Source: Salinimicrobium profundisediminis
GTDB lineage: Bacteria > Bacteroidota > Bacteroidia > Flavobacteriales > Flavobacteriaceae
Direction of reading: 5' to 3'
Assembly (NCBI RefSeq): GCF_026241755.1
Contig: NZ_JAPJDA010000006.1
Coordinates: forward strand, 8,454-72,453
Length of the DNA: 64,000 bases
Shown here: positions 1 to 29,807 of the stretch, piece by piece
Layout of the letters: every line of letters starts with the position of its first letter
Numbering within the stretch: position 1 is the stretch's first letter
Program-made: the position numbers and the translations under genes
The notes under the pieces: model-generated
What the model was told of the DNA's origin: nothing
Database searches by the model: none
Seen by the model: only the letters and a program-made list of their open reading frames with translations

Positions 1-811
1 TAAACCCGCAACTTGCAACCCGAACCTCTTCCGCAGTATTATCTTCCAAAAATGCCATTTTCAGCACCTCTTTCTGATCTTTTTGCAACTGACAATTTCC
101 CATGTCAGAAGGAATTTCTCAGTCTTAAAAAAGCTCCTTCGAAATGACAACAGAAACCTGTAGCAGGACAAAACATGTAACCTGCAACATGCAACAGGGT
201 AAACCCGCAACTTGCAACCCGAACCTCTTCCGCAGTATTATCTTCCAAAAATGCCATTTTCAGCACCTCTTTCTGACCTCTTCGCAACTGACAATTTCCC
301 ATTTCAGAAGAAATTTCGCAGTCTTAAAAAAGCTCCTTCGAAATGACATCAGCAACTTGCAACCGGGCTAAACCCGTACCCCGTAACCCGCAACACTTCC
401 GAAGTATTACCTTCCAAAAATGCCATTTTCAGCACCTCTTCCTGACCTTTTTACAACCGACATTTTTCCATTCCAGAAGAGATCCTTCAGTCGTGAAAAA
501 AGCTCCTTCGAAATAACAACAAGGAACTTGCAACCGGTCTAAACCCGCAACCCGAAACGTCCAACCCGCAACCCGCAACCTGCAACTGGAAAAATTTTCA
601 ACCCGAACCTCTTCCGCAGTATTACCTTCTAAAAATGCCATTTTCAGCACCTCTTGCAACCCGCAACTCGTAACCCGCAACTCGCAACTCGCAACTCGCA
701 ACCTGCAACCCGCAACCTGCAACCCGCAACCTGCAACCCGCAACCCGCAACTCACAACCCGCAACTCACAACCCGCAACTCGCAACCCGCCACTCTTCCG
801 CAGGTATTAAG
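1..811. repeat. Degenerate tandem array of ~170-215 bp units with heptanucleotide tracts
   Basis: Four and a half units share the core CTCTTCCGCAGTATTA (near 27, 226, 395, 610 and, partially, 793). In the first four it is followed by the palindrome AAAAATGCCATTTT (48-61, 247-260, 416-429, 631-644) and then by CAGCACCTCTT. The rest of each unit carries text close to AAAAAAGCTCCTTCGAAATGAC. Units are joined by tracts of 7-bp words such as AACCCGC, AACTCGC and AACCTGC, which expand into an almost pure heptamer tract at 651-790. Unit length varies (about 199, 169 and 215 bp), so it is not a CRISPR. Apparent reading frames here are low-complexity products of the heptamer and are not annotated. The array may extend beyond base 1. 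Confidence 0.9.
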
Positions 812-898
812 AAAAAAATCTACATTTAGTGATAAATTTTGCAACGCGACTTGTTTCCTGTCGTCTTTAAAGTGAAACCCAACCAAACTGAAGTTATT

Positions 899-1444
899 TT
901 GATACAACATCAATTAATAGAGGCTTGCAAACAAAATGACCGCAGAGCCCAGCTCAAGCTCTACAATAAGTATTGCGACGGCATGTACTATGTGGCCCTG
1001 AGGTTCGTAAATGATCCGTTTGAAGCTGAAGATGCCATGCAGGAAGCTTTTATAAAGGCTTTTCAAAAACTGGCACAATTTACAGGCGAGGTATCGTTTG
1101 GGGCCTGGCTTAAACGGATCGTGATAAATAAATGTCTCGATAAATTAAAAGCCCGAAAGCTGGAGATGGTTGCGATCAATGAACAGGTGTTGGGAACGGT
1201 TGAAGAGGAAGAGAACTGGAATGTTGAGGACGGGGTAGGTATTGAAGAGGTGAAGGAGACGATGCAGCAATTGCCCGAAAAATACAGATACCCGTTGATG
1301 TTGTATCTGCTGGAGGGTTATGACCATCAGGAAATTGCAGAAATACTCGACATTTCGCAGGTTGCTTCCAGGACCCTTGTTCACCGCGGAAAGAAAAAAT
1401 TACAGGACGAATTAAAAGAGAAAAGATATGGCACAGGATATTAG
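899..1444 (+). CDS. ECF-type RNA polymerase sigma-70 factor
   Basis: Extracytoplasmic-function sigma factor that would direct RNA polymerase to a small regulon. Region 2 is visible at about residues 12-80 (LYNKYCDGMYYVALRF, then EDAMQEAFIKAF and a WLKRIVINKCLDKL helix). Region 4 lies near residues 115-165 (LPEKYRYPLMLYLLEGYDHQ, then EIAEILDIS and an SRTLVHRGKKKL recognition helix). The frame is open from a TTG at 839 with a GTG at 872, but family members normally begin just before the QLIEACKQND segment, so I favour TTG 899 (181 aa). A TAAATTTTG string at 833-841 resembles the Bacteroidetes -7 element. The last 17 nt overlap the next gene, indicating translational coupling to a probable membrane anti-sigma protein. 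Family is sure, start is not. Confidence 0.9.
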   Translation: MIQHQLIEACKQNDRRAQLKLYNKYCDGMYYVALRFVNDPFEAEDAMQEAFIKAFQKLAQFTGEVSFGAWLKRIVINKCLDKLKARKLEMVAINEQVLGTVEEEENWNVEDGVGIEEVKETMQQLPEKYRYPLMLYLLEGYDHQEIAEILDISQVASRTLVHRGKKKLQDELKEKRYGTGY

Positions 1445-2045
1445 AAAGATGTTGCAGGAAGACAAGTCGTTGCCTTCTCAACCCCCAAGAGGACATCGTA
1501 ATAGATTTGAAGCGAGGCTGGAAGAGCATTTTCCGGAGAATAAACAGGAAAAATCTTCTAACAGGAGTTTCTTTTTCCTCAAAATAGCTGCCGTGCTGGT
1601 CGTAGCACTGGGTGTAGGCTTCTTCTTCCTTAATAATAAAGGAACTTTTAGCGGAAATGAGATCACCGATGCTCCCGCAGAGGTTGAACAGGAAAAGGAA
1701 GAGGAAATCGAGGTAACCAAAGAATATCAGCTTAGCGATGAATCTCCCGAGTTCAGGAAGATTGAGAATTTCTACCTGGCAAGCCTCAATATTGAGCTTG
1801 CAAAACTGGATGTGAATGAATCAAATAAGGCATTAGTAGATTCTTTTATGACACAACTGGCAGGTCTTGACCAGGAATACAAAAAGTTGAATGCCGAAAT
1901 TAGTGAAACCGGCCTTACCGAAAGCAGTGTTGAGGCTTTGATCTCCAACCTGCAGCTTAGGCTGGAGCTATTGTACAAACTGAAGAATAAAATTAAAGAT
2001 GTCAATCAATCAAAAATACAGGGAAATGAAAACTACAAAGCTTAA
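1428..2045 (+). CDS. Single-pass membrane protein, probable anti-sigma partner of the ECF factor
   Basis: 205 residues. A basic, Pro-rich cytoplasmic N-terminus of about 45 residues precedes one strong transmembrane segment (about 50-68, LKIAAVLVVALGVGFFFL), followed by an acidic linker (EVEQEKEEEIEV) and a helical periplasmic region with heptad-like leucines (SNLQLRLELLYKLKNKI). No zinc-binding ZAS motif (HxxxCxxC) is visible, so it is not a classical zinc anti-sigma factor. The 17-nt overlap with the sigma gene, the topology and the size suggest a sigma-regulating role; this is inference from context. It overlaps the next gene by about 20 nt, giving a three-gene operon. Confidence 0.75.
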   Translation: MAQDIRKMLQEDKSLPSQPPRGHRNRFEARLEEHFPENKQEKSSNRSFFFLKIAAVLVVALGVGFFFLNNKGTFSGNEITDAPAEVEQEKEEEIEVTKEYQLSDESPEFRKIENFYLASLNIELAKLDVNESNKALVDSFMTQLAGLDQEYKKLNAEISETGLTESSVEALISNLQLRLELLYKLKNKIKDVNQSKIQGNENYKA

Positions 2046-3426
2046 AACAGCAATTATTGCGCTGCTTTGTGCAACCGCTGGCCTGGCGCAAACGAGTAAA
2101 CTAAATAAAACGTTTAAGACGAATAAGGATGTAACCGTTAATATTAACGCCCGCCACACGCATATTGACGTGGAGTATTGGGACAGGAACGAAGTGCAGG
2201 TTTCGGCCTTTCTCGAAGGTGGCAGTGAGGACCAGAACAAGATGCTGCAAAGCTGGAGGCTTGATGTAGATGGATCGGCTTCAGAAGTAAGGATACATTC
2301 TGAAGCTACGCCAGGCGGCCCGGGAGATTTTAATATGGCTGCCCTGCAGGCACCACTTGCAAAATTACCCGAAATGATAGCGCCCCTCACCGAAATGATG
2401 GGACCAATGCTCGAGAGCCTCGCGACAAACCCGCCACTGCCGCCAGAATTTTATGCGAGTGTGGGGAATATCAATTTTGACTACGAACAGTACCAAAAAG
2501 ATGGCGAGAAATATATGGAGAAGTTCGAGAAACAGATGGAAAAGAATTTTGGGAAAGACTTTGAAAAAGCCATGGAAGAATGGGCCCAAAAGTTTGAAAA
2601 GGATTCTGTGCTCTGGAAAAAGCATGAAATGAGAATGGAGGCCTGGGGCGAAGACTTTGAGAAGGAGATGGAAGCCTGGGGAAAGACCTTCGAAAAAGAT
2701 ATGGAAAAGTGGGGTGAAAGTTTTGGAAAGGAAATGGAAGCCTGGGCTGCCAATATTGAAAAAGAAGCTCGCAATCAAAATCCTAAATCAGGGGCAAATG
2801 TTATTGTGCTCAAAGACCATAACATGGCTAAAAAAGTGCTGAAGGTTAAAATTCCGAGGTCTGGACAGCTTAAACTAAAGGTGCGCCACGGGGAGGTAAA
2901 GCTTGCCGGCACCACAAACAATCTAAGAGGAGAGGTTTCACATTCAAAGTTCAATGCTGCAGAAATAGCAGGGGAAAATACCAATTTTAGAGTTGCGTAT
3001 ACTCCTGTGATGATCAAGAGCTGGAAGTATGGCGTTCTCAATGCCGCTTATGTGCAGGATCTTAAAATTGAAAAAGCCGAGAGCCTGAAGCTCGATTCCA
3101 ATTCCAGTAGTGTTTACCTTAAAGAATTGGGGGAGACAGGAATTCTCTCAGGAACTTTTGGAGAGCTTAAGATCGACAAAGTGTCTCCTAAGTTTAAAAG
3201 TCTGGACGTTACTTTGGAGAATTCAGACCTTATCCTCGACCTGCCCGAAAGTGCTTTTAACTTTACATACAATGGAACCAATAGCGCAGTGAAATACCCT
3301 AAAGGACTCAATCTGACTTCAAGTAACTCCTACGATAATCAAAAACTGAAGGGCTACAATGGAAGCCAGAATGCGGGAGCAGCGATAAATATCTTTGCAA
3401 AATTTAGTGATGTTGTGCTGAAGTAA
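2026..3426 (+). CDS. Exported protein with hendecad coiled-coil insert between beta-strand repeats
   Basis: 466 residues from ATG 2026 (an in-frame ATG at 1999 would put nine polar residues before the signal peptide, so the later start is preferred). The signal peptide MKTTKLKTAIIALLCATAGL ends near AQ. Next comes a strand-rich segment (VTVNINARHTHIDVEYWDRN) resembling DUF4097-type adhesin-like proteins, then a highly charged helical region at about residues 150-250 with repeated FEKxMExWG units. The C-terminal half is strand-rich again (KLKVRHGEVKLAGTTNNLRG). Probably periplasmic or cell-surface. It is the third gene of the sigma/anti-sigma operon, so it may be the effector or the sensed component; function unknown. 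Confidence 0.8.
   Translation: MKTTKLKTAIIALLCATAGLAQTSKLNKTFKTNKDVTVNINARHTHIDVEYWDRNEVQVSAFLEGGSEDQNKMLQSWRLDVDGSASEVRIHSEATPGGPGDFNMAALQAPLAKLPEMIAPLTEMMGPMLESLATNPPLPPEFYASVGNINFDYEQYQKDGEKYMEKFEKQMEKNFGKDFEKAMEEWAQKFEKDSVLWKKHEMRMEAWGEDFEKEMEAWGKTFEKDMEKWGESFGKEMEAWAANIEKEARNQNPKSGANVIVLKDHNMAKKVLKVKIPRSGQLKLKVRHGEVKLAGTTNNLRGEVSHSKFNAAEIAGENTNFRVAYTPVMIKSWKYGVLNAAYVQDLKIEKAESLKLDSNSSSVYLKELGETGILSGTFGELKIDKVSPKFKSLDVTLENSDLILDLPESAFNFTYNGTNSAVKYPKGLNLTSSNSYDNQKLKGYNGSQNAGAAINIFAKFSDVVLK
2635..2766 (+). repeat. Four tandem 33-bp repeats encoding 11-residue units
   Basis: Within the exported protein, ATG-GAR-GCC-TGG-GG-type units begin at 2635, 2668, 2701 and 2734 and encode MEAWGEDFEKE, MEAWGKTFEKD, MEKWGESFGKE and MEAWAANIEKE. 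An exact 11-residue period is the hallmark of a right-handed (hendecad) coiled coil. More degenerate copies precede them (about 2515-2634). Confidence 0.85.
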
Positions 3427-3448
3427 TTTATTTTTGGCAAAAAACATC

Positions 3449-4135
3449 ATGCCAGATGCTCATTTTCTAACCGGCCTCACTACAGGATTTACACCTGTAA
3501 TTGATGCCGGTTTTTCTTTGGAAGATTATCAGCACGTCGATCTTTCGGTTAATAATGCTGAATTGACACAAGAGCAATTAGATTCCCCGGAAGCTTTCCA
3601 GCAGTATATAGAAACATTTCTTCGGAAGAAAGGTGGAAAAGTAGCCTGGGGCGGCTATAACGAACACCGCGGACTTTACAAGCGCAGCAAATTGTTTTCT
3701 TCGGCTGAAGATGAGGAATTAATAAGGAACAGACATATTGGAGTTGATATTTGGGCTCCGGCGGGTACTGCAGTCCTGGCGGTGCTCGATGGGAAGATCC
3801 ACAGCTTCCGGAATAACGACAACTTTGGGGATTACGGCCCTACGATCATTCTTGAACATGAGGCTGAAGGAAAGCACTTTTACACCCTTTATGGCCATCT
3901 TCAAAAGAAATCTTTAGAAGGATTAGCAGTGGGCCTGGCAGTGAGGCAGGGAGAGCAAATCGCTGCTTTAGGTGACGCTTCTGAAAATGGCAATTACGCC
4001 GCCCATCTACATTTTCAGATAATTCTTGATTTGCAGGGAAAAGCAGGGGACTATCCCGGTGTAGCCAACAAAAAAGAGCTGGACTTCTTCCTGAATAACT
4101 GTCCTAATCCTAACTTACTGCTGAAGATAAAGTAA
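3449..4135 (+). CDS. M23 family metallopeptidase (LytM-type endopeptidase)
   Basis: Zinc peptidase that would cleave peptidoglycan cross-links. The M23 signature is complete: HIGVD supplies the first His and the Asp ligand, and HLHFQI near the C-terminus supplies the HxH pair; between them is the usual YTLYGHL segment. About 230 residues. ATG 3449 is preferred over an in-frame TTG at 3434 because the latter adds only MAKNI. No signal peptide or lipobox is visible, unlike many M23 enzymes, so export is unclear. It starts shortly after the preceding gene but is functionally unrelated. The convergent DUF2911 gene ends about 110 bp downstream. Confidence 0.88.
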   Translation: MPDAHFLTGLTTGFTPVIDAGFSLEDYQHVDLSVNNAELTQEQLDSPEAFQQYIETFLRKKGGKVAWGGYNEHRGLYKRSKLFSSAEDEELIRNRHIGVDIWAPAGTAVLAVLDGKIHSFRNNDNFGDYGPTIILEHEAEGKHFYTLYGHLQKKSLEGLAVGLAVRQGEQIAALGDASENGNYAAHLHFQIILDLQGKAGDYPGVANKKELDFFLNNCPNPNLLLKIK

Positions 4136-4233
4136 GTGCTTTAATGAATCGTGCTTAGTAGAGTAAAGATGTTGATTTGAAAGGAGAATTAATGTTTTTT
4201 CCAAAGCCTCGAGATCTAACAAAATCACCTCTC

Positions 4234-4247
4234 AAAAATGCCATTTT
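4234..4247. repeat. Dispersed palindrome AAAAATGCCATTTT at a stop codon
   Basis: Copy of the window-wide palindrome. It overlaps the TAA stop (4246-4248) of the minus-strand DUF2911 gene, between two convergent genes. The flank reads AGAAAGCTCTT, a weak version of the CAGCACCTCTT flank in the 5' array. Confidence 0.7.
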
Positions 4248-4830
4248 AGAAAGCTCTTACTCGTTGCAGTGTCTCCGGATTTCTTATTGGAACACGTATG
4301 AGGGTTTGATCCCATGCCAGATTTAAATTGATGAATTCGCGCTGGTTTTCAAAATTTATGGTGAATTGTTCTACGGGGTTTTTCAGCTTTCGAACAGGAA
4401 CTTCAATGGTAAGCACATCATAATCTGCAACACGTGACGGAAGCTTGTCTGCCGTAATACCCCAGGGGTACATTTCAGAATTAAAAATAACCTTCCACGA
4501 ATCTTCCATCGGGATCGTCCATAGGGTGTAGGTGCCGGCGGGAAGCGGCGAACCATCTACGAGAATATCTTTTGAAGTTGTAAAGGTGGTAGCTTCGTTT
4601 GCTCCTGTTCGCCACACTTCGTTGTATGGTACAAGGCCGCCAAAGATTTCCCTGTCTTTTTTATAAGGTCTGTTGTAAAAGACTTCAAGGTGTAGATCGC
4701 CACTGTTATATTCTACAGTATCTTCAGGACTATAAGACTTGGTGTTATTTTTATAAATTATGTAGATAAGCATTACAACCCCCAGGACTACAAATAGTCC
4801 GGCGAGACCTTTTCTAAACGTACTTTGCAT
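4246..4830 (-). CDS. DUF2911 domain-containing protein
   Basis: 194 residues. An N-terminal hydrophobic segment (about 9-26, LAGLFVVLGVVMLIYIIY) acts as a signal anchor. The DUF2911 fold follows, with its recognisable core: VFYNRPYKKDREIFGGLVPY, then NEVWRTGANEATTFTTSKDI and LPAGTYTLWTIP. The family is common in Bacteroidetes and of unknown biochemical function, probably a periplasmic beta-sandwich. Monocistronic by position: it converges on the M23 gene, and 79 bp separate it from the gene upstream on the same strand. Confidence 0.9.
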   Translation of the reverse strand: MQSTFRKGLAGLFVVLGVVMLIYIIYKNNTKSYSPEDTVEYNSGDLHLEVFYNRPYKKDREIFGGLVPYNEVWRTGANEATTFTTSKDILVDGSPLPAGTYTLWTIPMEDSWKVIFNSEMYPWGITADKLPSRVADYDVLTIEVPVRKLKNPVEQFTINFENQREFINLNLAWDQTLIRVPIRNPETLQRVRAF

Positions 4831-4909
4831 AGATTAAAGATAGCGATTTTCCACCGGAAGCTCACATTTTATATCCCGACCTCATTTAGAAATATACCGG
4901 AAAGTTAGT

Positions 4910-5407
4910 TTATACCGCCTTCAGTTTGCGGACTCGTGGCTGGTTGGAAGGGTCTAAAGCTTCTTCACCAGATTCATACTTCTGGCATTTCTCCACAGCA
5001 TTTTCAATGGTTTCTTTTTGTTTTTTCAGAAGCTTGAGGATCTCTTTTGGTAAAGCTTTCTTTTCCAGTAATTCATTATAAATTTCCAGGTTTTCCTGAT
5101 CCTTTTTTCGACATTTTTTCAGAAGTTTTAAAGGTTTGGCTTTTACAAGGGCTTTTCTCTCTTCCCGCCAGTCACGATCAAGATTTCCTTTTTGCACCCA
5201 ATCTCTTGCAGGTTCTATGCCCGCCTGTACCAGTTGTTCCGAAATTTCGTAGCTAAAGCGATTCCTGTTTACAGTCTCGTGGTTGAAAAATCGCTTCAGC
5301 TCCACTTGCTGTACATCTTCACTTGCGTTGTAGTATATACGCTCTGCTTCAAAACTCTCTGTAAGCAGCCAGTTCAACTTCTTAAATTTAGAGTAACGAT
5401 CTTCCAT
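4910..5407 (-). CDS. DUF2383-like (PA2169-type) four-helix-bundle protein
   Basis: About 165 charged, entirely helical residues, cytoplasmic, without signal peptide. The second half (RKALVKAKPLKLLKKCRKKD followed by NLEIYNELLEKKALPKEIL) fits the DUF2383/PA2169 pattern of a ferritin-like bundle, including the short Leu-Pro turn between the last helices. The frame is open from a TTG nine bases upstream, but ATG 5407 is the natural start. Such proteins are often stress-associated in Bacteroidetes (general knowledge); nothing in this sequence proves a function or metal binding. Confidence 0.7.
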   Translation of the reverse strand: MEDRYSKFKKLNWLLTESFEAERIYYNASEDVQQVELKRFFNHETVNRNRFSYEISEQLVQAGIEPARDWVQKGNLDRDWREERKALVKAKPLKLLKKCRKKDQENLEIYNELLEKKALPKEILKLLKKQKETIENAVEKCQKYESGEEALDPSNQPRVRKLKAV

Positions 5408-5555
5408 AGTTGTCAATTTTATATGTTCGAAGATAACTACAGAAACAGATTATGATCTGCCAATCTATTGTTAAATAGCTGATTTTTAATAGAATATTCA
5501 GTAAAATTTAAGAATAAAAAATGAGTTGTTAAGAATTTAAAGTCTTAGAAAACAA

Positions 5556-6287
5556 TTAGAAGTTTACAAACATTTTCTCAAGCACATCTCCTACAAAATA
5601 GGCTAGAAAAGCAGCTATTCCTCCCAGAAAGAGGGTCTCTAAAATGCCAAAAAAGAGGTTCTTTTCGGTCACAATACTCTTTAAACTACCAATTATAGCA
5701 AGGGCTACTGCTGTGAGGATGCAGGAAAAGGGAAAGAGTTCTTCATCAATGGCAGGCCCTCTGCCTGCAAAGAAATATGAAAGAAGTGGGACCGACCCTA
5801 CTATTACAAAGCTAAAAAAGGTCATGCCTGCAGTTTTGTAAGGGGTTTTATCACTTTTCACCATTTCCAGTTCCTCTTTCATCATGGTGTCTACCCACAC
5901 CTCTTTATCGGCCGTAATTACTTCAACTACTTGCTCGAGCAGTTCGCCTTTAAAGCCCTTTGCAGCATAAATTTCACGTATTTCCTGTATTTCCTTTTCC
6001 CGAAGATTTTCTACTTCCCAGTATTCTATTTGTTTATGGCGCTCAAAAGTGTCTCTTTCGGTCTTTGTTGAAAAGAAATTTCCCACGCTCATAGAAAAGC
6101 CATCAGCAATAAGATTGGCCATTCCCAGAATTACCACAACCTGAATTCCCAAATCTGCTCCTTCGGCCCCGGCGACTACGGCAAAAGTGGTAATAGCACC
6201 GTCAATACCGCCGTAAACAAATTCGGAAATATAATCTTTGTTGAAAAAGAGATTTTTCTTGCCGGAATGAAGTTGTTTTTCCTGCAT
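5556..6287 (-). CDS. VIT1/CCC1 family iron/manganese transporter
   Basis: 243 residues, integral membrane. The first transmembrane signature is clear (SEFVYGGIDGAITTFAVVAG), followed by GMANLIADGFSMSVGNFFST, the acidic cytoplasmic metal-binding helices (residues about 75-135, rich in Glu) and three further membrane segments ending FLAYFVGDVLEKMF. The family moves Fe2+ or Mn2+ out of the cytoplasm by proton antiport. The gene lies 18 nt downstream of a P19-like gene on the same strand, so the two are probably co-transcribed and functionally linked. Confidence 0.9.
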   Translation of the reverse strand: MQEKQLHSGKKNLFFNKDYISEFVYGGIDGAITTFAVVAGAEGADLGIQVVVILGMANLIADGFSMSVGNFFSTKTERDTFERHKQIEYWEVENLREKEIQEIREIYAAKGFKGELLEQVVEVITADKEVWVDTMMKEELEMVKSDKTPYKTAGMTFFSFVIVGSVPLLSYFFAGRGPAIDEELFPFSCILTAVALAIIGSLKSIVTEKNLFFGILETLFLGGIAAFLAYFVGDVLEKMFVNF

Positions 6288-6305
6288 GGGAATTAAATCT
6301 AGAGG

Positions 6306-6836: not shown

Positions 6837-6918
6837 TGGATACTTTTTTAGGGTTGTTCCATGAAGTTAAGCAGCAGCTGAATTTTTTCCTGCCAATGTC
6901 CTGTTAAAAAGGGGGCTC

Positions 6919-6933
6919 AAAAATGGCATTTTT
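6919..6933. repeat. Dispersed palindrome AAAAATGGCATTTTT
   Basis: Perfect 15-bp copy in the gap between the DUF4199 gene and the P19-like gene, followed by AAGACCCCTTC, a variant of the CACCTCTT flank. Confidence 0.75.
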
Positions 6934-7033
6934 AAGACCCCTTCTAAAAATTTTTTCAGAAGAAATAAAAGAATCTACTTACAGTCCTTTTAATAATTTT
7001 CCTGCGGAAGGATTTTGCAATCTTCCTGTTTAT

Positions 7034-7552: not shown

Positions 7553-7613
7553 TGTAGTTTAGTTGGTTCTTTAAACTTAATGAAAATTGGAATAAATAAA
7601 GCAGAATAAAAAG

Positions 7614-7690: not shown

Positions 7691-7730
7691 AATATGTAAT
7701 ATTTAGAGTCAGCGGACGACTGATTACTGC

Positions 7731-12248: not shown

Positions 12249-12263
12249 AAAAATGCCATTTTT
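12249..12263. repeat. Dispersed palindrome AAAAATGCCATTTTT
   Basis: Perfect 15-bp copy upstream of the adenosyltransferase gene. On the minus strand it is followed by GGAACCTCTTCAG, matching the CAGCACCTCTTTCTG flank of the 5' array. Confidence 0.8.
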
Positions 12264-12604: not shown

Positions 12605-12775
12605 TCAATACCTGCAGAATTTATTTCTTTTTCGCTCGTTGTACCGGTTTCTGAAATTCCTGTTCTTTTTAAGCTCCCGGTTCTTTTTTGTGCGATTGCC
12701 ATTCCATAAGAAGAAGGCTAGAAAAACCACAATAATGATGATATAGAGAATCGTGTCGCTATCTAAAAATGACAT
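12605..12775 (-). CDS. Tiny membrane protein (56 aa), paralogue-like neighbour
   Basis: A short frame: MSFLDSDTILYIIIIVVFLA then FFLWNGNRTKKNRELKKNRN and a basic tail ending KFCRY before a TGA. One transmembrane helix (about residues 9-24) and a positively charged tail, the same layout as the gene at 12336-12536, which lies 68 bp further downstream. Its ATG is part of the dispersed palindrome (12765-12779), so the repeat supplies the start codon. Coding is supported by architecture and paralogy rather than by a named family. Confidence 0.55.
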   Translation of the reverse strand: MSFLDSDTILYIIIIVVFLAFFLWNGNRTKKNRELKKNRNFRNRYNERKRNKFCRY

Positions 12776-12779
12776 TTTT
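12765..12779. repeat. Dispersed palindrome AAAAATGACATTTTT containing a start codon
   Basis: Perfect copy. On the minus strand the central ATG is the start codon of the 56-aa membrane protein. The CACCTCTT-like flank is absent here. Confidence 0.7.
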
Positions 12780-19055: not shown

Positions 19056-19058
19056 CTC

Positions 19059-21172: not shown

Positions 21173-21192
21173 TCTCAAGCTATTAGTCCCAA

Positions 21193-21981: not shown

Positions 21982-21984
21982 TGT

Positions 21985-24453
21985 ATGGCACATGAAGATG
22001 ATCATATTAGTGATGTAGGTTCCACATTTGACTTTAAAGGATTTGTGCTGAAAGTCTTTAGCTACTGGCAATTAATTCTGTTGTCTATAGCTATAAGTCT
22101 GGGAGTGGCTTATTACAATAATGTACGTAAACTTCCTGTTTATCAATTAGGGAATTCCATTTCCATAAAAGACGATCAAAACCCCTTTTTTACCAGCAAT
22201 ACCAGCCTCACTTTTAACTGGGGAGGAACCTCAGACAAGGTGAATACGGCCATGACCATTTTGCGGTCAAGATCGCATAATGAAGAGGTGGTAGAGCGCT
22301 TGCAGTATTATATTGCTTATCAACAGGACGGAGAATATCAACGTGTGAATGCTTACGGTTTCACTCCTTTTAAAGTAGTGGCCGATACTTCTGCGTACCA
22401 GGCCCAGGGAACCACTTTTACCATTCGTTTTAAAGACCCTGAAACCTTTACGCTCAGCACGACTTTTGCCGGAGGAAATGCTTCGGTATATAATTATGAT
22501 ACGAAAGAATATGGCAATGTGGTGGTCGAGGAAGGGGAGTTTAGCCGTGAATACCGGCTTAACGAGCCCATAAATTTGCCATTTTTCAATGGTAAGCTTG
22601 TGCCAACGCCACGAGTTCCTGTTATAGATAAACCTTTTTACGTGCAATTCCGGCATTTTGATGGTACTGTGGGGAGGTTCCGCGGAGTGGCGGTAAGTCC
22701 GCAGTCGCAGGGAGCTTCGGTTTTAAATCTTTCCATGACAGGTGATAATAAAGCTGAGATCGTAGATTACCTCAATGGAACTGTACGGGTATTGAGTCAA
22801 AATATGCTGGAGCGCAAGAATCTTTTTGCCACCAAGACCATTCGGTTTATTGACAGTAGTTTAAGTGTCAAGGCTATGGAGCTTAAGGTGGTGGAAGATG
22901 AATTGAATAGGTTTAGAAATACCAATTCTATCCTGGATATTTCTGCGGAAAGCAGTCAGCTAAACTCCAAACTTACAGGGCTTGATGTGAGGAAAGAAGA
23001 TATTTCACGTCAACTGGCCTATTATGAAACCCTGCAGGATTACCTGCAATCACGAAATGATTATTCTGATGTGCCGGCACCTTCGGTAGCGGGAATTGCT
23101 GAAGGAAGTATTGTTAGCGGAGTAGGACGAATTGTTTCCCTTGCCGAAGAAAGGCGGAAATACGAATATTCCCTACAGGAAAATTCCCCTGTTTTTCAGG
23201 ATATAGACCGGCAGATAAATGCAGTAAAAGATGTGCTGCTCGAAAATATGTCTTCTTCTCAAAACCTCCTGCGGCAGGAGCTGCGAGACATCAATAGAGA
23301 AATTGCCCTGGCTGAAGCCGAAATTAGGAAACTACCGCAGGAAGAGCAGGACTTGCTTAAAATCCAGCGAAAGTATTCTATAAGTGAGCGCACTTATAAT
23401 ATGTTCCTGGAAAAACGCAGTGAAGCCGGACTCGTAAAAGCAGCCAACGTGAGTGATGTTATGGTTATTGATACCGCCAAAGATACCGGTGGCGGACAGA
23501 TTGGACCAAATACACAACTTAACTATGTGATGGCATTAATGGTGGGTGGAATGATTCCGCTGACTTTTGTTTTCCTGTTAGTTTTTCTGAATACCAACGT
23601 GCACAACGCACAGGAAGTCACCCGTTTATCACCCATTCCCATTCTGGGGATGATTGGGAAAAGTAGGATGGACACAAATCTTGCGGTCTTCAATAAACCC
23701 AAATCGGCTATTGCTGAAGGGTTTCGAGGGTTGAGGTCCAGTCTGCAGTTTATGTACAAAAAGCAGGGGGTGAGCGGCTCTAAAACGGTGATGATCACTT
23801 CATCGGTTTCGGGGGAAGGGAAAACTTTTTGTGCCATGAACCTCGCCACTGTTTTTGCTTTGAGTGAAAAGAAGACCCTGTTACTGGGTGCCGATCTACG
23901 TAAACCGAAGATCTTTGATGACTTTAAGATCAATAACGATGTGGGAGTGGTGAATTATCTTATAGGGCAGGAGTCGCTGGAGGCAATCATACAGCCAAGT
24001 ATGGTGCCACACCTGGATGTGATTACTGCAGGGCCAATTCCGCCAAACCCTTCAGAATTACTTATGAACGAGCAGATGGAAACCCTCATGAGTGAACTGC
24101 GGGAGCGTTATGATTATATTATTATGGATACCCCGCCGGTGGGTGTGGTTGCCGATGCGCTCAACCTCATAAAATACGCCGATGCCACTCTATACCTCAT
24201 CCGCCAGGATTACACCAAACGCGGAATGCTTGAAGTGATCAACGAGAAGTATAACAAAGGTGAAGTAAAGAATATTTCATTCGTTCTTAACCACTTTGTG
24301 CACCGGGCCAAGTATGGTTATGGCTATGGTTACGGCTATGGCTATGGTTACGGTTATGGGTATGGCCAGTATGGTAAAGGTTATGGGCAGCAGGAAACAA
24401 GGACTGGTAAGCTGAAGAAGAAGTGGAGGGAGATAATGCGGAATTTTGAGTAA
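21985..24453 (+). CDS. Wzc-like polysaccharide co-polymerase / BY-type tyrosine autokinase
   Basis: 822 residues. N-terminal Wzz domain with a first transmembrane helix (about 27-47, YWQLILLSIAISLGVAYY), a large periplasmic coiled-coil region, a GNVR-like EEQDLLKIQRKYSISERTYN segment, and a second membrane helix near residue 525. The cytoplasmic BY-kinase follows: Walker A SSVSGEGKTF (about 605-614), Walker A' LLLGADLRKPKIFDDF, Walker B YDYIIMDTPPVGVVADAL. The tail is a tyrosine cluster encoded by nine tandem TAYGGN hexamers. It controls chain length and export with the Wza-like lipoprotein; cyclic autophosphorylation of the tail is the known control. Confidence 0.95.
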   Translation: MAHEDDHISDVGSTFDFKGFVLKVFSYWQLILLSIAISLGVAYYNNVRKLPVYQLGNSISIKDDQNPFFTSNTSLTFNWGGTSDKVNTAMTILRSRSHNEEVVERLQYYIAYQQDGEYQRVNAYGFTPFKVVADTSAYQAQGTTFTIRFKDPETFTLSTTFAGGNASVYNYDTKEYGNVVVEEGEFSREYRLNEPINLPFFNGKLVPTPRVPVIDKPFYVQFRHFDGTVGRFRGVAVSPQSQGASVLNLSMTGDNKAEIVDYLNGTVRVLSQNMLERKNLFATKTIRFIDSSLSVKAMELKVVEDELNRFRNTNSILDISAESSQLNSKLTGLDVRKEDISRQLAYYETLQDYLQSRNDYSDVPAPSVAGIAEGSIVSGVGRIVSLAEERRKYEYSLQENSPVFQDIDRQINAVKDVLLENMSSSQNLLRQELRDINREIALAEAEIRKLPQEEQDLLKIQRKYSISERTYNMFLEKRSEAGLVKAANVSDVMVIDTAKDTGGGQIGPNTQLNYVMALMVGGMIPLTFVFLLVFLNTNVHNAQEVTRLSPIPILGMIGKSRMDTNLAVFNKPKSAIAEGFRGLRSSLQFMYKKQGVSGSKTVMITSSVSGEGKTFCAMNLATVFALSEKKTLLLGADLRKPKIFDDFKINNDVGVVNYLIGQESLEAIIQPSMVPHLDVITAGPIPPNPSELLMNEQMETLMSELRERYDYIIMDTPPVGVVADALNLIKYADATLYLIRQDYTKRGMLEVINEKYNKGEVKNISFVLNHFVHRAKYGYGYGYGYGYGYGYGYGQYGKGYGQQETRTGKLKKKWREIMRNFE
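24313..24366 (+). repeat. Hexanucleotide repeat encoding a (Tyr-Gly)9 tail
   Basis: Nine consecutive TAYGGN units near the 3' end of the autokinase gene, followed by CAG-TAT-GGT-AAA-GGT-TAT. Unit-number change would add or remove Tyr-Gly pairs without shifting the frame. Confidence 0.9.
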
Positions 24454-24610
24454 TTCTCGCGTAGCTCGAATTAGAGGAGAGTGGGAAGAGGGGCTGTGTA
24501 ACTTCGAATAGGAAGTCGGAGACGGAACTTTGGAGCTACTACTGAATTTTGAGCACAAGAAAATTTGTTTGTTGTTTTTGGTTTTTTGTTTATTGTAATT
24601 CTGAGAAACG

Positions 24611-25006
24611 ATGGGAAAAGTGGAGCGATTTGAGGATCTGGAAGTTTGGAAGCTGGCTCGTGTAATTTGTCAGAAGATAGAAACTTTATTTCAGGAAACG
24701 GGTTTAGGGAAAAACTATTCACTCAGAAATCAAATGGAACGTAGTTCAGGTTCTATAATGGACAATATTGCTGAAGGTTTCGGAAGAGGAGGTAATCAAG
24801 AATTTATAAACTTTCTAAGTTATTCGAAAGGATCTACTACCGAACTAAAATCCCAACTTTATAGAGCATTAGATAAAAAGCTGATTTCCCAAGAACAGTT
24901 TGACAATCTCGGAGCCGATTGCACTCAAGCCGATAATCGTATAGGTGCATTCATGGCATACCTCCGGAAATCGGATATGCGAGGAATAAAGTTCAAGAAG
25001 ACTTAA
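24611..25006 (+). CDS. S23-type four-helix-bundle protein
   Basis: 131 residues, all helical. The S23/IVS family pattern is clear: FEDLEVWKLARVICQKIETL, then LRNQMERSSGSIMDNIAEGF and GRGGNQEFINFLSYSKGSTT with ELKSQLYRALD. These pentameric bundles were first seen in intervening sequences of 23S rRNA genes, but free chromosomal copies are common in Bacteroidetes and have no assigned function. It lies between the autokinase and gmd, in the operon direction. A second diverged copy occurs at 30890-31252. Confidence 0.9.
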   Translation: MGKVERFEDLEVWKLARVICQKIETLFQETGLGKNYSLRNQMERSSGSIMDNIAEGFGRGGNQEFINFLSYSKGSTTELKSQLYRALDKKLISQEQFDNLGADCTQADNRIGAFMAYLRKSDMRGIKFKKT

Positions 25007-25061
25007 CCATAAACCATAGACTACAAACAATAAACAACAGCTTATTCCGTAAATAATTGAA

Positions 25062-26222
25062 TTGCAAAACACTTTAAAGAAAAGAGCTATCAATAAAGAA
25101 CCCCGACAAAAAACCGCCCTCATAACCGGCATCACAGGCCAGGATGGTGCTTATTTGGCCGAATTCCTCCTGGAGAAAGGATATGTGGTGCATGGGATCA
25201 AAAGGAGGTCTAGCCTTTTTAATACAGAAAGGGTAGATCACCTGTATCAGGATCCGCACGAGAAAGATATCAGGTTTAAACTTCATTATGGAGATTTGAG
25301 TGATTCTATGAATCTCACGAGGATCATTCAGGAAGTGCAGCCCGATGAAATATACAATCTTGGAGCTATGTCTCATGTGAAGGTGAGCTTTGACACCCCT
25401 GAATATACTGCTAATGTCGACGGATTAGGGACTCTTAGGATTTTAGAGGCGGTAAGGCTTCTTGGCCTCACTAAGAAAACAAAGATCTATCAGGCTTCAA
25501 CTTCAGAGTTGTATGGACTGGTACAGCAGGTGCCGCAAAACGAAAACACCCCTTTCTATCCGCGAAGCCCTTATGGCGTTGCGAAATTGTATGCCTACTG
25601 GATAACAATTAATTACCGGGAGGCTTATAAGATGTTTGCATGTAATGGAATTCTATTCAACCATGAATCTCCGTTAAGGGGAGAAACTTTTGTCACCCGT
25701 AAAATAACTCGTGCCGTTGCCCGTATTGCCCTGGGAATGCAGGAAAATTTCTTTTTAGGAAATCTTAATGCTGAAAGAGATTGGGGGCACGCAAAAGATT
25801 ATGTGGAAGCTATGTGGCTCATGCTGCAACAGGATCAGCCGGATGATTATGTGATCGCCACTGGAAAAACCACTTCAGTAAGAGAACTGGTGCGTATGGC
25901 CTTTGCCTGTGTTGGAATTACTGTGGAATTTTTGGGTGCCGGAATTGAAGAAGTTGCAAAAGTGATAAAGTGCGAAAATCCCGATTACCAGATAGCATCG
26001 GGAGCTACAGTACTTCAGGTAGATCCTAAATACCATCGCCCCACCGAAGTCGATCAGCTTATTGGAGACGCTTCAAAATGTAAAGAAAAGTTGGGCTGGA
26101 CGCCGAAGTATGATTTAAAAGATCTGGTGCAGGAAATGATGGAAGCCGATGTGAACCTCTTCCGTAAAGAAAAATATTTAAGAGAAGGAGGGCATAAGAC
26201 ATTAGATTATAATGGAGAGTAG
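25062..26222 (+). CDS. gmd: GDP-mannose 4,6-dehydratase
   Basis: 386 residues from TTG 25062. Converts GDP-D-mannose to GDP-4-keto-6-deoxymannose, the first step to GDP-L-fucose. NAD(P) site [35 protein letters not shown], the catalytic [10 protein letters not shown] with the [12 protein letters not shown] Tyr-Lys pair, and the family block [20 protein letters not shown] are all present. The next gene is fcl, 37 bp downstream. The spacer before gmd is a short AAACAATAAACAAC-type repeat tract. Confidence 0.97.
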
Positions 26223-26259
26223 TTCGTAGTCTATGGACGTTAGACGGTAGATTTTAGAA

Positions 26260-27183
26260 ATGGAGAAAGATTCAAAAATATATGTTGCAGGACACACCGG
26301 AATGGTGGGTTCGGCGTTACTGCGGAAGCTGGAAAAGGAGGGTTTCAAAAATGTCATTTTTCGCACCTCTTCCCAACTCGACCTCACAAACCAGGAAGCG
26401 GTAAAAAACTTCTTTAAAGAGGAGAAACCTGATTATGTCTTTCTGGCAGCGGCAAAAGTAGGGGGTATTATGGCCAATAATACTTACAGAGCTGATTTTT
26501 TGTATGAAAACCTGATGATCCAGAATAATGTCATCCACCAGAGCTATTTAAATGGTGTCAAAAAGCTCCTTTTTTTCGCTTCTTCCTGTATTTATCCTAA
26601 AATGTCACCCCAGCCCATAAAAGAAGACTACCTGCTCACAGGAAAACTCGAAGATACCAATGAGCCTTATGCCATTGCAAAAATTGCCGGGCTAAAAATG
26701 TGCGAGAATTACAATCGGCAGTACGGTTGTGATTTTATTTCAGTAATGCCTACAAATCTATATGGTCCCAATGATAACTATGATCCTGAGACTTCTCATG
26801 TGCTTCCGGCTTTACTTCGGAAGTTTCATGAGGCAAAAGTAGAAGATAAAGTTTCCGTAGAAGTATGGGGAAGCGGGGAGCCGAAAAGGGAATTTTTACA
26901 TGTAGACGATCTTGCTGCTGCCTGCCTGCACCTCATGAATACTTACAGCGGAAATGTTAGCGTAAACATTGGGACAGGAGAAGATTTATCTATTAAAGAA
27001 CTTGCAGAAATGATAAAAGACATTTCAGGTTACTCTGGAGCGATTACCTGGAATAGATCTAAACCCGATGGTACGCCCCGAAAGCTGTTGGATGTAAGCC
27101 TGATTCACAACCTTGGCTGGAGGCATAAAATTGGTCTGGAAGAAGGTCTTGCAAAAGTTTATGAGGAGGAATTTTTGATGTAG
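26260..27183 (+). CDS. fcl: GDP-L-fucose synthase
   Basis: 307 residues. Epimerase/reductase that completes GDP-L-fucose. NADP site [38 protein letters not shown], the catalytic [20 protein letters not shown], and [16 protein letters not shown] with the Tyr-Lys pair. The N-terminal strand [15 protein letters not shown] is encoded by a copy of the dispersed palindrome plus its CACCTCTT flank (26347-26371). Follows gmd in the same operon; fucose is probably a component of the exported polysaccharide. Confidence 0.97.
26347..26361. repeat. Dispersed palindrome AAAAATGTCATTTTT inside fcl
   Basis: Perfect copy within the coding sequence, followed by CGCACCTCTTCC, matching the flank CAGCACCTCTTCC seen at 416-445. 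It encodes Lys-Asn-Val-Ile-Phe. Confidence 0.8.
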
Positions 27184-27300
27184 TGGAGAGAGGCAACCAA
27201 CTAATGACTACCCACAATCGACTATAGACTACCGGCTACAGACAAATCCTATCCGCCTCAAATGAAATAATTCTCCATCTTATCCGTTAGATAAATGCAA
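27184..27300. repeat. Heptamer-like tract after fcl
   Basis: Text such as GACTATAGACTACCGGCTAC with 7-bp spacing of CTA-words (about 27205-27243). Related text occurs at 25005-25040 and 26220-26250 between the operon genes. Confidence 0.6.
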
Positions 27301-27365
27301 ATTTATTGGGGTATAAAAAAAATTCCTTTTTATTTGTAAACAAATTGACGCATATTCCAAATCTT

Positions 27366-28040
27366 ATGAAAAAATATCTTTTAGGCCTGTTTTTTATCTT
27401 GACCACAGTTTCAATATGCTTTTCTCAAGAATTGAGTTATGGCCTAAAAGCCGGAGTTAATCATCCTATGGGTGGTGAGATTGTAGGGTTACAAAACAAC
27501 TATGCATTCCAGAAGAATACTTCTGAGGCTGAGGGGAATCTTGGCTTTCATGGAGGTATCTTTTTACAGGTTGATTTTGGTAAGTTTTTTGTCCGGCCCG
27601 AGGTAGTTTATACTTCATTAGATACAGAATTCACTTTTATAGAAGAAACTTCAATCTATTCTGTTCAAAAATTTGATATTCCTTTATTAGTAGGTTATAA
27701 TATTTGGGGACCAATTGATATTTATGCCGGACCTGTGTATTCGAATATACTGGATGCTACTTTGGAGGGGGAAGAATTCCTGAACCCAATTGTTGTTCAA
27801 GACACACCAATAAATGCTCAGGCTGGCGTGAAGGTTGAATTTGGAAGGTTTGGATTGGATCTACGATATGAAAGATCTTTGTCTTCGGCTGAGCTTCAGC
27901 GTTTAGATTTTGGTGAAGGTTATAATGAAATCAATGAAGCAGAATTCACAGATTCCAGGCTAAATCAAATAATTGTGGGAGTGATCTTCAAAATTGGAGG
28001 TCCAGGACTAAACGAAAGACGACGAAGGGCTTGTTACTAA
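27366..28040 (+). CDS. Outer-membrane beta-barrel protein (PorT-like)
   Basis: 224 residues from ATG 27366 (an in-frame ATG sixty bases upstream would add a polar extension before the signal peptide). Signal peptide MKKYLLGLFFILTTVSICFS then QELSYGLKAGVNHP, the usual start of the small PorT/OmpA-like eight-stranded barrels of Bacteroidetes. Alternating aromatic strands follow (KFFVRPEVVYTSL, FGLDLRYERSLSS, NQIIVGVIFKIGG). Role in the polysaccharide locus is unclear; it follows fcl after a 180-bp gap of repeat-like DNA and may be separate. Confidence 0.85.
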   Translation: MKKYLLGLFFILTTVSICFSQELSYGLKAGVNHPMGGEIVGLQNNYAFQKNTSEAEGNLGFHGGIFLQVDFGKFFVRPEVVYTSLDTEFTFIEETSIYSVQKFDIPLLVGYNIWGPIDIYAGPVYSNILDATLEGEEFLNPIVVQDTPINAQAGVKVEFGRFGLDLRYERSLSSAELQRLDFGEGYNEINEAEFTDSRLNQIIVGVIFKIGGPGLNERRRRACY

Positions 28041-28106
28041 AAAGAACTTTTGAAAGTTAGCTAGTCGCACCTGTCCTCAGTATCATTATATTTTATCGTT
28101 AATTAG

Positions 28107-29807
28107 TTATAGAAGTAATGCTGTGTTCACCCATTGCCACACATGGAAGCTACTCGTGTTATCTCCTGCCAGATACTTTTTCCATTCTTTCTGAATTTTT
28201 TCGTGATCAAACCAATCTGTTGCTGAAGTATTTTTAAGGTGAAGCAATTTCTCTTCCACAAATGCTTTAAGTTCCTGACTTAACCATTCCCGCTGGGGAG
28301 TTTGGAGAGGACGTTTTGGAGCATAAGAGATAGTAGAGGGAACTAGCGGTTTTAGGATCTCGCGGAGCATATATTTTCCAACTCCATTCTTAATTTTATA
28401 ACCCTCTGGTTGTGCAAAAGCGAGTTCGACGAGGCGATAATCAAGAAAAGGCTCCCGAAGTTCAGTGCTATAGGTCATGGAAACCCTGTCATTGAATCGC
28501 AGCGCTCGTGGGAGTTTGGTATAAAAAAGATCCCGAAACTGCAGATTCTGCAGTCTGTTGTCGAACGGTTCTGGATATTCTGTCTTTTGTGCCAAAGCGG
28601 CAAATTCGGGATTTAGCACATGCGTTCGGAAAGGAGAATTTTGTCCGGTGCCCTGGATGATTGAGCCGGAGGTTTGATAATAGTCATACCCTGCCCATTG
28701 CTCATCCATTCCCTGCCCGTCAAGTAACACCTTTACACCGTTGGCATGAGCCTGTTCAAAAATTTTAGAATAAGCCATGGTAGGAATACCTCCAAAAGGT
28801 TCATCCTGTTGCCGACTCATTTTTATTGCATTCGTTTGAACTTCGGAAGCCGAAAAAAGTACTTTGTGAAGCGGGTTTTGTGTAGTTGAGATCATCTGTT
28901 CTACCCATGGAAGCTCATCATAACGTTCATCTCCCGTGTAAAAAGAATAAGCATTGACCTGCTGTTTATCTTCAAACATATTCACCAGTGCAAGGAGGAG
29001 GGAACTATCCACTCCGCCGCTTATGTTAAATGCTACAGGCACATCGGCACGGAAACGAAGTTTGATACTGTCTTTCAGTAGTTCGAGATATTCAGCTTTT
29101 GCTTGTTCAATAGAGCTTTCAGATCTTATATTTTGGACTCTTGAAACAAAATTATACCACTTTTCAAGCTTTAGCCGACCTTCAGAATATTCCAGCAAAT
29201 ATCCACCCGGTAATTGTTTGATGTTACTGTAAAAAGCCTCTTCCGGCATACCGTAGGAGCCATAGCTAAAATAATTTGCCCAGACCTTTAGGTTTGGTGG
29301 GGTGTCAAAAATGACATTTTTGAGTGTCTTTATTTCACTGCTGAAGTAGAGGTTTTTATCAGCTTCAGAATAATAAAAAGGTTTCACTCCAAACCTATCC
29401 CGTGCAGCAAAAAGCTTTTTTTCCCGGCAATCCCAGATGGCAAAGGAAAACATTCCGTTAAATCTATTAAGGCATTCTTTTCCCCAGTAGATAAAAGCTG
29501 CCAGCAGTACTTCAGTATCCGACGAGGTTTTAAAATTGTAATGCGGTTTTAATTCCTCTTTCAGCTCTTTATAATTATAAATTTCCCCGTTAAAACTCAA
29601 ATAATATCTACCGGAATTATCTATAAAGGGTTCATTGGCATCGGGGGAAAGATCAATAATGGAAAGCCGGTTGTGGCCTATGGCTGCAAAACCCGGATCG
29701 AAGTATGTGCCGGTGTGATCAGGGCCACGGTGATGTTGTGCCTGAAGCATTTTTTGAAGTTCTGCTTCAGAAGGGTTTGGGCCAATGATTCCTGCAATTC
29801 CACACAT
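28107..29807 (-). CDS. asnB: Asparagine synthase (glutamine-hydrolysing)
   Basis: 566 residues. N-terminal class II amidotransferase with Cys2 nucleophile (MCGIAGIIG), RGPDHTGTYF and SFNGEIYNYKELKEEL; C-terminal synthase domain with the PP-loop FNISGGVDSSLLLALVNMF and LDGQGMDEQWAGYDYY. Makes asparagine, but in polysaccharide loci such proteins often amidate sugar acids (for example WbpS-like enzymes), which fits this setting; which reaction applies cannot be told from sequence. A dispersed palindrome lies within the gene (29307-29321). A TAGCTTTG promoter element precedes it, and it runs opposite to the gmd/fcl operon. Confidence 0.93.
   Translation of the reverse strand: MCGIAGIIGPNPSEAELQKMLQAQHHRGPDHTGTYFDPGFAAIGHNRLSIIDLSPDANEPFIDNSGRYYLSFNGEIYNYKELKEELKPHYNFKTSSDTEVLLAAFIYWGKECLNRFNGMFSFAIWDCREKKLFAARDRFGVKPFYYSEADKNLYFSSEIKTLKNVIFDTPPNLKVWANYFSYGSYGMPEEAFYSNIKQLPGGYLLEYSEGRLKLEKWYNFVSRVQNIRSESSIEQAKAEYLELLKDSIKLRFRADVPVAFNISGGVDSSLLLALVNMFEDKQQVNAYSFYTGDERYDELPWVEQMISTTQNPLHKVLFSASEVQTNAIKMSRQQDEPFGGIPTMAYSKIFEQAHANGVKVLLDGQGMDEQWAGYDYYQTSGSIIQGTGQNSPFRTHVLNPEFAALAQKTEYPEPFDNRLQNLQFRDLFYTKLPRALRFNDRVSMTYSTELREPFLDYRLVELAFAQPEGYKIKNGVGKYMLREILKPLVPSTISYAPKRPLQTPQREWLSQELKAFVEEKLLHLKNTSATDWFDHEKIQKEWKKYLAGDNTSSFHVWQWVNTALLL
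29307..29321. repeat. Dispersed palindrome AAAAATGACATTTTT inside asnB
   Basis: Perfect copy inside the coding sequence. On the coding strand AAAAATGTCATTTTT is followed by GACACCCCACC and encodes Lys-Asn-Val-Ile-Phe, as in fcl. Confidence 0.8.

What the first reader, a model, noticed from the sequence alone, without database searches (positions are those of the whole stretch)
48..29321. Dispersed 15-bp palindrome AAAAATGNCATTTTT with a conserved 3' flank, in intergenic and coding DNA
Ten copies: 48-61, 247-260, 416-429, 631-644, 4234-4247, 6919-6933, 12249-12263, 12765-12779, 26347-26361, 29307-29321. Most are followed (on one strand) by NNCACCTCTT or a close variant, so the unit is longer than the palindrome and has an orientation. 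Two lie inside genes, one at a stop codon, one forms a start codon. All lie in the first 30 kb; none was seen after that. A palindrome with a fixed centre could be a regulator or nucleoid-protein site, a methylation target, or the recognition end of a small mobile repeat. I know of no description of it.
Basis: seen in the sequence. Interest (0 to 1): 0.75.

Follow-up and report, generated by a model that had tools for sequence, protein, structure and literature searches.

The report
Genus-wide repeated 41-bp DNA recognition site
The short mirror-image DNA word found in this window is one of about 460 copies scattered over the chromosome of a bacterium; it is really the core of a 41-letter two-sided site, apparently kept by selection and seen at this level only in the genus Salinimicrobium, and what reads it is unknown.

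Summary
AAAATGNCATTTT occurs 460 times in the window's own genome against 3 for the reversed pattern. The 12 genomes of its genus, Salinimicrobium, hold 0 to 460; other genera hold 0-11 in a family sample and 0-14 in a phylum sample. The site is a 41-bp dyad: both halves match one half-site, roughly AAAWnASSTnYCAAAAATG, and the signal ends at +-20. The halves vary independently, so hairpins are not what is conserved. Aligned relatives show that copies come and go mostly by substitution, not insertion of a unit, and are retained while the centre base changes. By a crude ORF call about half lie between genes and over a third inside. No chromosome domain was found. Low counts (0-34) branch early in the genus; the sister genomes with 424 and 460 are deep inside. 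Best reading: a duplex recognition site for an unknown symmetric protein acting chromosome-wide, gained within one genus. An architectural role is my first guess; transmission drive, as with uptake sequences, is the main rival. No paper describing it was found.

The parts
48..61 (.). site 1 of the tandem cluster, AAAAATGCCATTTT
247..260 (.). site 2 of the tandem cluster
416..429 (.). site 3 of the tandem cluster
631..644 (.). site 4 of the tandem cluster
1..700 (.). imperfect tandem repeat (unit about 200 bp) that carries sites 1-4
   Evidence: read by eye; no repeat program was run
4234..4247 (.). site 5, overlaps the stop of the DUF2911 gene 4246-4830 (-)
6919..6933 (.). site 6, between two genes on the minus strand
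12249..12263 (.). site 7, intergenic; retained in G157 with the centre base changed C to G
12765..12779 (.). site 8, intergenic; the G157 alignment has small gaps here, and an ungapped reading of G157 also contains the core
26347..26361 (.). site 9, inside the NAD-dependent epimerase gene 26260-27183 (+); retained in G151 and G154, changed in G152 and G158
29307..29321 (.). site 10, inside the asparagine synthase gene 28107-29807 (-); retained in G157, G156, G150; absent without indel in G007

Best explanation
It is a 41-bp, two-fold symmetric, double-stranded recognition site for a sequence-specific DNA-binding protein that works as a symmetric oligomer on the chromosome as a whole. Each half reads roughly AAAWnASSTnYCAAAAATG, and the halves meet at one free, G/C-favouring base. 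The site became abundant after the earliest sampled Salinimicrobium lineages had split off, and copies are retained by selection or drive. SHOWN: enrichment, restriction to one genus in the samples searched, change mostly by substitution, retention above neutral expectation, symmetry without covariation of the halves, absence of a chromosome domain, shorter distance to gene 3' ends. INFERRED: that a protein reads it, and that the protein is symmetric. GUESSED: that its job is architectural (bending or wrapping DNA, anchoring loops). The layout suggests this: A-tract, flexible TGNCA centre, T-tract, further A/T-rich stretches at +-16 to 20.
For: 460 copies against 3 for the reversed control; 424 against 1 in G157. 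One-mismatch copies are also in excess: 53 and 112 in the G000 and G157 samples, against 6-9 and 5-20 for three control palindromes. Dyad signal to +-20 (153 sites). Halves match each other about as independence predicts, for example 0.31 observed and 0.30 expected at -12, 0.33 and 0.31 at -13; the largest departure from -7 to -30 is 7 percentage points, in both directions. Centre free: at one intergenic site (L027 15117) G000, G151, G158, G154 and G156 have centre C, A, T, A and G with exact arms (G151 and G154 are close relatives). Over 27 gap-free ortholog pairs, 21 of 324 core cells changed (6.5%) against 117 of 432 cells at +-21 to 28 (27%) (pairs are not independent). Exact core kept in 21 of 36 aligned comparisons outside the low-copy genomes; in G157 8 of 15, p 0.001 if each base were kept at 86%. 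Counts on the tree: G155 0, G149 19, G007 34 branch early; then 118-225; G157 424 and G000 460 are sisters.
Against: No binding protein was identified. HU/IHF, a natural family for a bent 35-40 bp footprint (recalled), has the same two full-length members in all 12 genomes, so an extra HU/IHF gene is not the answer. Other architectural or occlusion sites known to me are biased to chromosome domains (recalled); none is seen here. Large differences between species (118 to 460) fit drive at least as well as a housekeeping role, and 15 of 36 comparisons had lost or never had the exact core. G101, another genus, has a different palindrome at a similar density (12 in 100 kb), so dense palindromes alone do not prove an unusual system.
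Confidence: 0.5

Rival explanations
1. A self-recognition signal for DNA exchange (uptake, packaging or transfer), accumulating by transmission drive as DNA uptake sequences do in Neisseriaceae.
For: No chromosome domain and near-random spacing, change by substitution, presence in genes (asparagine synthase site), closeness to gene 3' ends (median 76 bp against 162 for uniform placement), build-up within one genus, no hit in 2.9 million viral contigs for a stringent form that at most 14 of 62 and 29 of 92 sampled sites satisfy.
Against: Neisseriaceae uptake sequences are short and present in thousands of copies (abstract and passages of PMC3630211); that they are oriented is recalled. This one is palindromic, 41 bp and at most 460 copies. 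No receptor was sought. A second, oriented motif in the same genomes (TTCNGMAG) fits an uptake word better.
Confidence: 0.22
2. A highly iterated palindrome of the cyanobacterial HIP1 type, created or kept by a methylation-linked repair process.
For: Similar behaviour: over-represented palindrome, substitutional (the title of a 1997 paper cited in PMC4390886 says so), patchy between relatives (PMC4390886 abstract and passages).
Against: A core of 12 fixed bases plus graded flanks is far longer than a usual methyltransferase target (recalled). HIP1 deviations are biased to the first and last base; here they are commonest at the inner T and G (32 and 25 of 112 in G157; outermost A 21). No methyltransferase was examined.
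Confidence: 0.08
3. Ordinary transcription terminators or regulatory operators that happen to share a word.
For: Shorter distance to gene 3' ends; a few copies are long near-perfect inverted repeats (L024 16636, L027 11272).
Against: 59 of 154 sampled sites lie inside called ORFs (a few of these ORFs may be spurious). Halves do not covary, so hairpins are not generally selected. Divergent gaps, where operators belong, hold 9 of 78 typed intergenic sites where their share of gap length (21%) predicts about 16.
Confidence: 0.07
4. A small mobile repeat (MITE, REP) or the end of one.
For: The four window copies at 1-700, a cluster at G000 C3 83.9-85.0 kb, and copies in cassette arrays are duplicated as part of longer repeats.
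Against: Outside those arrays, places without the site are mostly aligned with substitutions; three of five G000-only sites differ from G157 by one substitution, one by six, one by small gaps; the asparagine synthase place in G007 has no indel. No sequence beyond +-20 is shared.
Confidence: 0.03
5. A nucleoid-occlusion or macrodomain site (Noc, SlmA, MatP type).
For: Similar palindrome length with a free centre (matS, recalled).
Against: Those sites are biased with respect to the terminus (recalled). Here five stretches (100 kb) near the terminus inferred from GC skew hold 18 sites, more than the mean of 2.3 per 20 kb, and the first 100 of 203 plus-strand purine-centred copies in G157 are uniform in 200-kb bins from 0 to 2.0 Mb (p 0.92).
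Confidence: 0.05

Closest known systems
HIP1, highly iterated palindrome of cyanobacteria (GCGATCGC)
   Same: Over-represented palindrome, clade-limited with exceptions, function not settled (PMC4390886, abstract and passages).
   Different: HIP1 is 8 bp and tied to methyltransferases; this is a 13-bp core in a 41-bp graded dyad, 1 per 8.8 kb in G000, with no known enzyme.
DNA uptake sequences of Neisseriaceae (DUS) and Pasteurellaceae (USS, recalled)
   Same: Genome-wide, lineage dialects (PMC3630211, abstract and passages); location in genes and at gene ends is recalled.
   Different: DUS is a 10-12 base word in thousands of copies, read by ComP (PMC3868556, listing only); this is palindromic, longer and sparser.
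matS/MatP, NBS/Noc, SBS/SlmA (recalled)
   Same: 12-14 bp palindromes read by dimers, dispersed on the chromosome.
   Different: Those are domain-biased and few; this shows no domain, up to 460 copies, and one genus.
IHF/HU and Fis sites (recalled)
   Same: Long footprint with A-tracts and flexible steps, suited to bending.
   Different: IHF sites are asymmetric; HU/IHF gene number does not change with site number.

Membership tests
HIP1-type highly iterated palindrome | Palindrome far above composition expectation | tested here: met
   460 vs 3 reversed control; control palindromes; palindrome scan
HIP1-type highly iterated palindrome | Propagates by substitution | tested here: met
   mostly substitutions at places without the site; a few small gaps
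HIP1-type highly iterated palindrome | Sequence GCGATCGC or alternate short GC-rich palindrome | tested here: not met
   AT-rich 13-bp core, 41-bp dyad
HIP1-type highly iterated palindrome | Cognate DNA methyltransferase in the same genomes | not tested
   no methyltransferase search was run
DNA uptake sequence | Oriented (non-palindromic) word (recalled) | tested here: not met
   palindromic core; halves share one consensus
DNA uptake sequence | Biased uptake of DNA that bears it | not testable with these tools
   needs transformation assays
Macrodomain or nucleoid-occlusion site (matS, NBS, SBS) | Enriched in or excluded from the terminus region (recalled) | tested here: not met
   uniform bins over the listed part, terminus stretches not depleted
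Mobile repeat (REP, MITE) | Gained and lost as an inserted unit | tested here: not met
   mostly substitutions, not a missing unit, at places without the site
Intrinsic terminator / hairpin | Complementary arms maintained by covariation | tested here: not met
   arm matches close to independence
HU/IHF binding site | Extra or lineage-specific HU/IHF gene where sites are many | tested here: not met
   two full-length PF00216 genes in all 12 genomes; a third, partial hit over cut-off in G150 and G152 and below it in G153. A changed specificity of a shared HU is not excluded.

The most novel reading that the evidence does not exclude
Salinimicrobium has evolved its own genome-marking system within one genus: an unknown symmetric protein reads a 41-bp dyad, and marks have multiplied from a handful to about 460 per chromosome by point mutation, some inside genes, because marked DNA is favoured in DNA exchange or because the marks fold the chromosome. 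The genus would be a natural time series of such a system being built.
Probability: 0.35. Interest if true: 0.85.

Novelty: new variant of a known kind. Interest (0 to 1): 0.68.

Why it matters
Dispersed recognition words (Chi, KOPS, DUS, matS) are often old and shared by a whole clade (recalled). Here the species of one genus hold 0, 19, 34, 118-225 and 424-460 copies, and the low counts branch early on a one-locus tree. That makes it possible to watch a chromosome acquire a motif system, to ask whether selection or drive builds it, and to look for the protein by simple bait experiments. It would also be a chromosome-wide sequence code in Bacteroidota, whose nucleoid proteins are, as far as I recall, little known.

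Tried and rejected
Mobile element: rejected for dispersed copies from alignments. Hairpin or terminator: rejected from lack of covariation and from coding copies. Terminus or origin domain: a first sparse sample hinted at depletion near the terminus (9 sites in 7 stretches against 83 in 32, counted by hand); five more stretches there held 18 sites, so the hint was dropped. Dialects in other genera: in eight genera, 100 kb each, this palindrome has 0 or 1 copies, but other palindromes recur: TCCGCC-N3-GGCGGA 12 times in G101, TTCAGC-N3-GCTGAA 7 times in G101, AAACAA-N10-TTGTTT 8 times in G143, against 18 and 21 for the present core in 100 kb of G000 and G157; whether those are mobile repeats or something like this was not examined. 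In the early-branching G007, weak relatives of the motif are in mild excess (5.0 per 100 kb at score 16 or more, against 0 in the eight other genera, 1.0 in G149, 21.8 in G157 and 29.7 in G000). Outside spread: a stringent 29-bp form in the genome-contig collection hit 16 stretches, 15 Salinimicrobium and one Gillisia limnaea (most sites do not fit this form, and the tool may leave out the window's own records); the two Gillisia hits are one inverted repeat duplicated with its gene, and that genome has 8 core copies. Extra HU/IHF gene: rejected. Cassette arrays as the source of the dispersed sites: not supported, because many weaker matches to the array element cover only the motif and its close flanks. 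First tree was wrong because three loci were on the other strand; redone, from one 3.2-kb locus, midpoint-rooted, without an outgroup. Counting error noticed on review: the patterns that are not symmetric may count one site twice, so only the symmetric ones are used here. Limits: gene calls are crude (ORFs of 100 aa or more, longest first; they call the repeat region at 429-785 an ORF), most counts rest on 380 kb of G000 and 780 kb of G157, and tandem copies and related species are not independent.

Papers: PMC4390886 and PMC3630211 were seen as abstract and passages; all others only in search listings. Statements about matS, NBS, SBS, USS, IHF, Fis, Chi, KOPS, the size of methyltransferase targets and integron rules are recalled.
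Full report
OBSERVATION. Four of the ten belong to a tandem repeat at 1-700. The window lies at G000:C68:8454-72453 in a 4.04-Mb assembly of 101 contigs. That genome holds 460 copies, and the same pattern read backwards occurs 3 times.

DISTRIBUTION. In a family sample of 149 genomes, the genomes of other genera have 0-11 copies, with reversed-pattern controls of 0-9. In a phylum sample of 296 genomes, those other than G000 have 0-14. The 12 genomes of the genus have 460, 34, 19, 118, 225, 121, 164, 207, 0, 201, 424 and 191 copies, with controls of 0-4; the genome with 0 is 74% complete and the one with 164 is 75% complete. A stringent 29-bp form in the genome-contig collection found 16 stretches: 15 in Salinimicrobium (S. 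xinjiangense, S. sediminilitoris, S. terrae, S. nanhaiense, strain TH3, MAG LH_M86) and one in Gillisia limnaea, whose genome has 8 core copies. No viral contig holds a stringent 21-bp form; at most 14 of 62 and 29 of 92 sampled sites fit that form, judged by the shorter symmetric pattern.

ANATOMY. From 153 sites in samples of G000 and G157, the signal is symmetric and runs from -20 to +20. Counting from the centre, each half is A-rich at -20 to -16, A at -14, often GG or CC at -13 and -12, T at -11, Y at -9, C at -8, A at -7, then AAAATG. The centre is C 56, G 45, T 29, A 23. The two halves are close to independent: matching between arms differs from expectation by at most 7 percentage points from -7 to -30, in both directions. 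A selected hairpin or cruciform would show an excess; a symmetric protein reading duplex DNA would not. Single deviations in G157 are commonest at the inner T (32 of 112) and G (25), then at the outermost A (21), and rarer in between (8, 9, 17), which may mean that the A-tracts are read by shape (inference).

PLACEMENT. Of 154 sites, 84 are between called ORFs, 59 inside and 11 at edges, in sequence that is 87-88% coding by a crude ORF call. Intergenic sites lie nearer gene 3' ends than uniform placement predicts (median 76 against 162 bp) and are fewer in divergent gaps (9 of 78 typed, where 21% of gap length predicts about 16). In the complete 3.51-Mb genome G157 the tool listed the first 100 of 203 plus-strand purine-centred copies, up to 2.0 Mb: their 200-kb bins are uniform (p 0.92) and their gaps fit an exponential (p 0.71, coefficient of variation 1.24). 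Thirty-eight evenly spaced stretches show no significant over-dispersion (p 0.11; one further stretch chosen by hand was left out). Five stretches near the terminus inferred from GC skew hold 18 sites.

EVOLUTION. In 22 aligned blocks between G000 and the G157 sample (85.6 kb, mean identity 85%) 6 sites were shared, 5 were G000-only and 2 G157-only. Of the five, three differ from G157 by one substitution, one by six (in a 70% identical block), one by small gaps. Of the two, one is the same place as a G000 site (window 12766) shifted by gaps, and one lies in a gapped stretch. With more relatives, exact cores were kept in 21 of 36 comparisons at 70-89% block identity; in G007, left out of that count, 0 of 3 were kept. 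One G157 loss (L027 15117) is a one-base deletion. Over 27 gap-free pairs, 6.5% of core cells and 27% of outer flank cells changed. The site in asparagine synthase (29308) is retained in G157, G156 and G150; in G007 the aligned stretch has the same length but a different sequence, which fits a site made, or unmade, by base replacement at the cost of amino acids. A midpoint-rooted tree of one 3.2-kb locus places G149 (19) and G155 (0) first, then G007 (34), then G153 (164), G158 (191) and the rest, with G157 (424) and G000 (460) as sisters. Copy number thus appears to have grown within the genus. G007 already has a mild excess of weak sites.

MECHANISM. I take a symmetric DNA-binding protein as likely (about 0.8) because of the dyad, the free centre and the graded independent flanks. 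What the protein does is open. Architecture is favoured by the bendable layout and the spread over the whole chromosome; drive through DNA exchange is favoured by the genus-limited growth and the presence in coding sequence. HU/IHF gene number does not follow the sites.

KNOWN KINDS. It behaves like HIP1 and like uptake sequences but does not meet defining features of each (membership table). No description was found in full-text searches for highly iterated palindromes with HIP1, uptake sequences with Bacteroidetes and palindromes, Salinimicrobium genomes (15 of 75 papers listed), chromosome-wide or nucleoid-occlusion palindromes and over-represented palindromes with flavobacteria. The library holds only open-licence papers.

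SIDE FINDINGS. The same genomes carry a second, oriented over-represented word TTCNGMAG. Nine of 12 genus genomes have matches covering most of a ~118-bp folding element that separates small ORFs in arrays; in G007 nine copies of this element on one contig carry the present motif.

Noticed in passing
L044 1-15124 (G007 contig 15); element matches also at G157:C1:2925800-2947237, G151:C11:343169-365962, G152:C8:499479-503498, G158 C34/C38, G150 C14/C22, G000 C39/C40/C33: Integron-like cassette arrays: in L044 16 of 21 listed ORFs are on one strand, and nine ~118-bp elements with outer inverted repeats (CGGTTAACG...CGTTAACCG) carry AAAATGNCATTTT in their middle; one element folded as single-stranded DNA has z -3.7. 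Matches over most of the element occur in 9 of 12 genus genomes (G153 matched only at the motif, G149 and G155 not at all). 11 of G007's 34 copies are on this contig. Whether the elements in other genomes carry the motif was not checked one by one.
   Followed up: partly
G152:C8:498030-498821, G151:C11:371975-372766, G150:C12:330310-331104, G000:C24:64899-65696 and others: A tyrosine recombinase of about 400-420 aa matches the integron-integrase model TIGR02249 in two blocks but stays below its cut-off (0 of 12 genomes over it; control genomes also ring) and lies within several kb of array elements in several genomes. A shorter one beside an element in L223 may belong to an insertion element (judged by eye).
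   Followed up: partly
samples of G000, G157, G149, G007, G101: A second over-represented, oriented word, TTCNGMAG (TTCCGAAG 152 vs 23 and 306 vs 44 expected in G000 and G157), also enriched in G149, G007 and in another genus, G101; TTCCGAAG is not clearly enriched in the seven other sampled genera. The form TTCTTCGGAA shows no gene-strand or replichore bias; the form TTCTTCTGAA does show a gene-strand bias.
   Followed up: partly
L020 3500-5500 (G000:C3 83.5-85.5 kb): Tandem array of ~123-bp units; five units carry the exact motif and others carry variants with one or more changes.
   Followed up: no
window 540-790: Low-complexity stretch of AACCCGCAACTCGCAACCTGC-like units next to the site cluster.
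   Followed up: no
samples of G101 and G143: Other genera show different repeated palindromes: TCCGCC-N3-GGCGGA (12 in 100 kb) and TTCAGC-N3-GCTGAA (7) in G101; AAACAA-N10-TTGTTT (8) in G143. Not examined further.
   Followed up: no
L105 2520 and 6823 (Gillisia limnaea): A gene end and its long inverted repeat are present twice 4.3 kb apart, the second copy of the gene shorter at its 5' side; could be an assembly effect.
   Followed up: no
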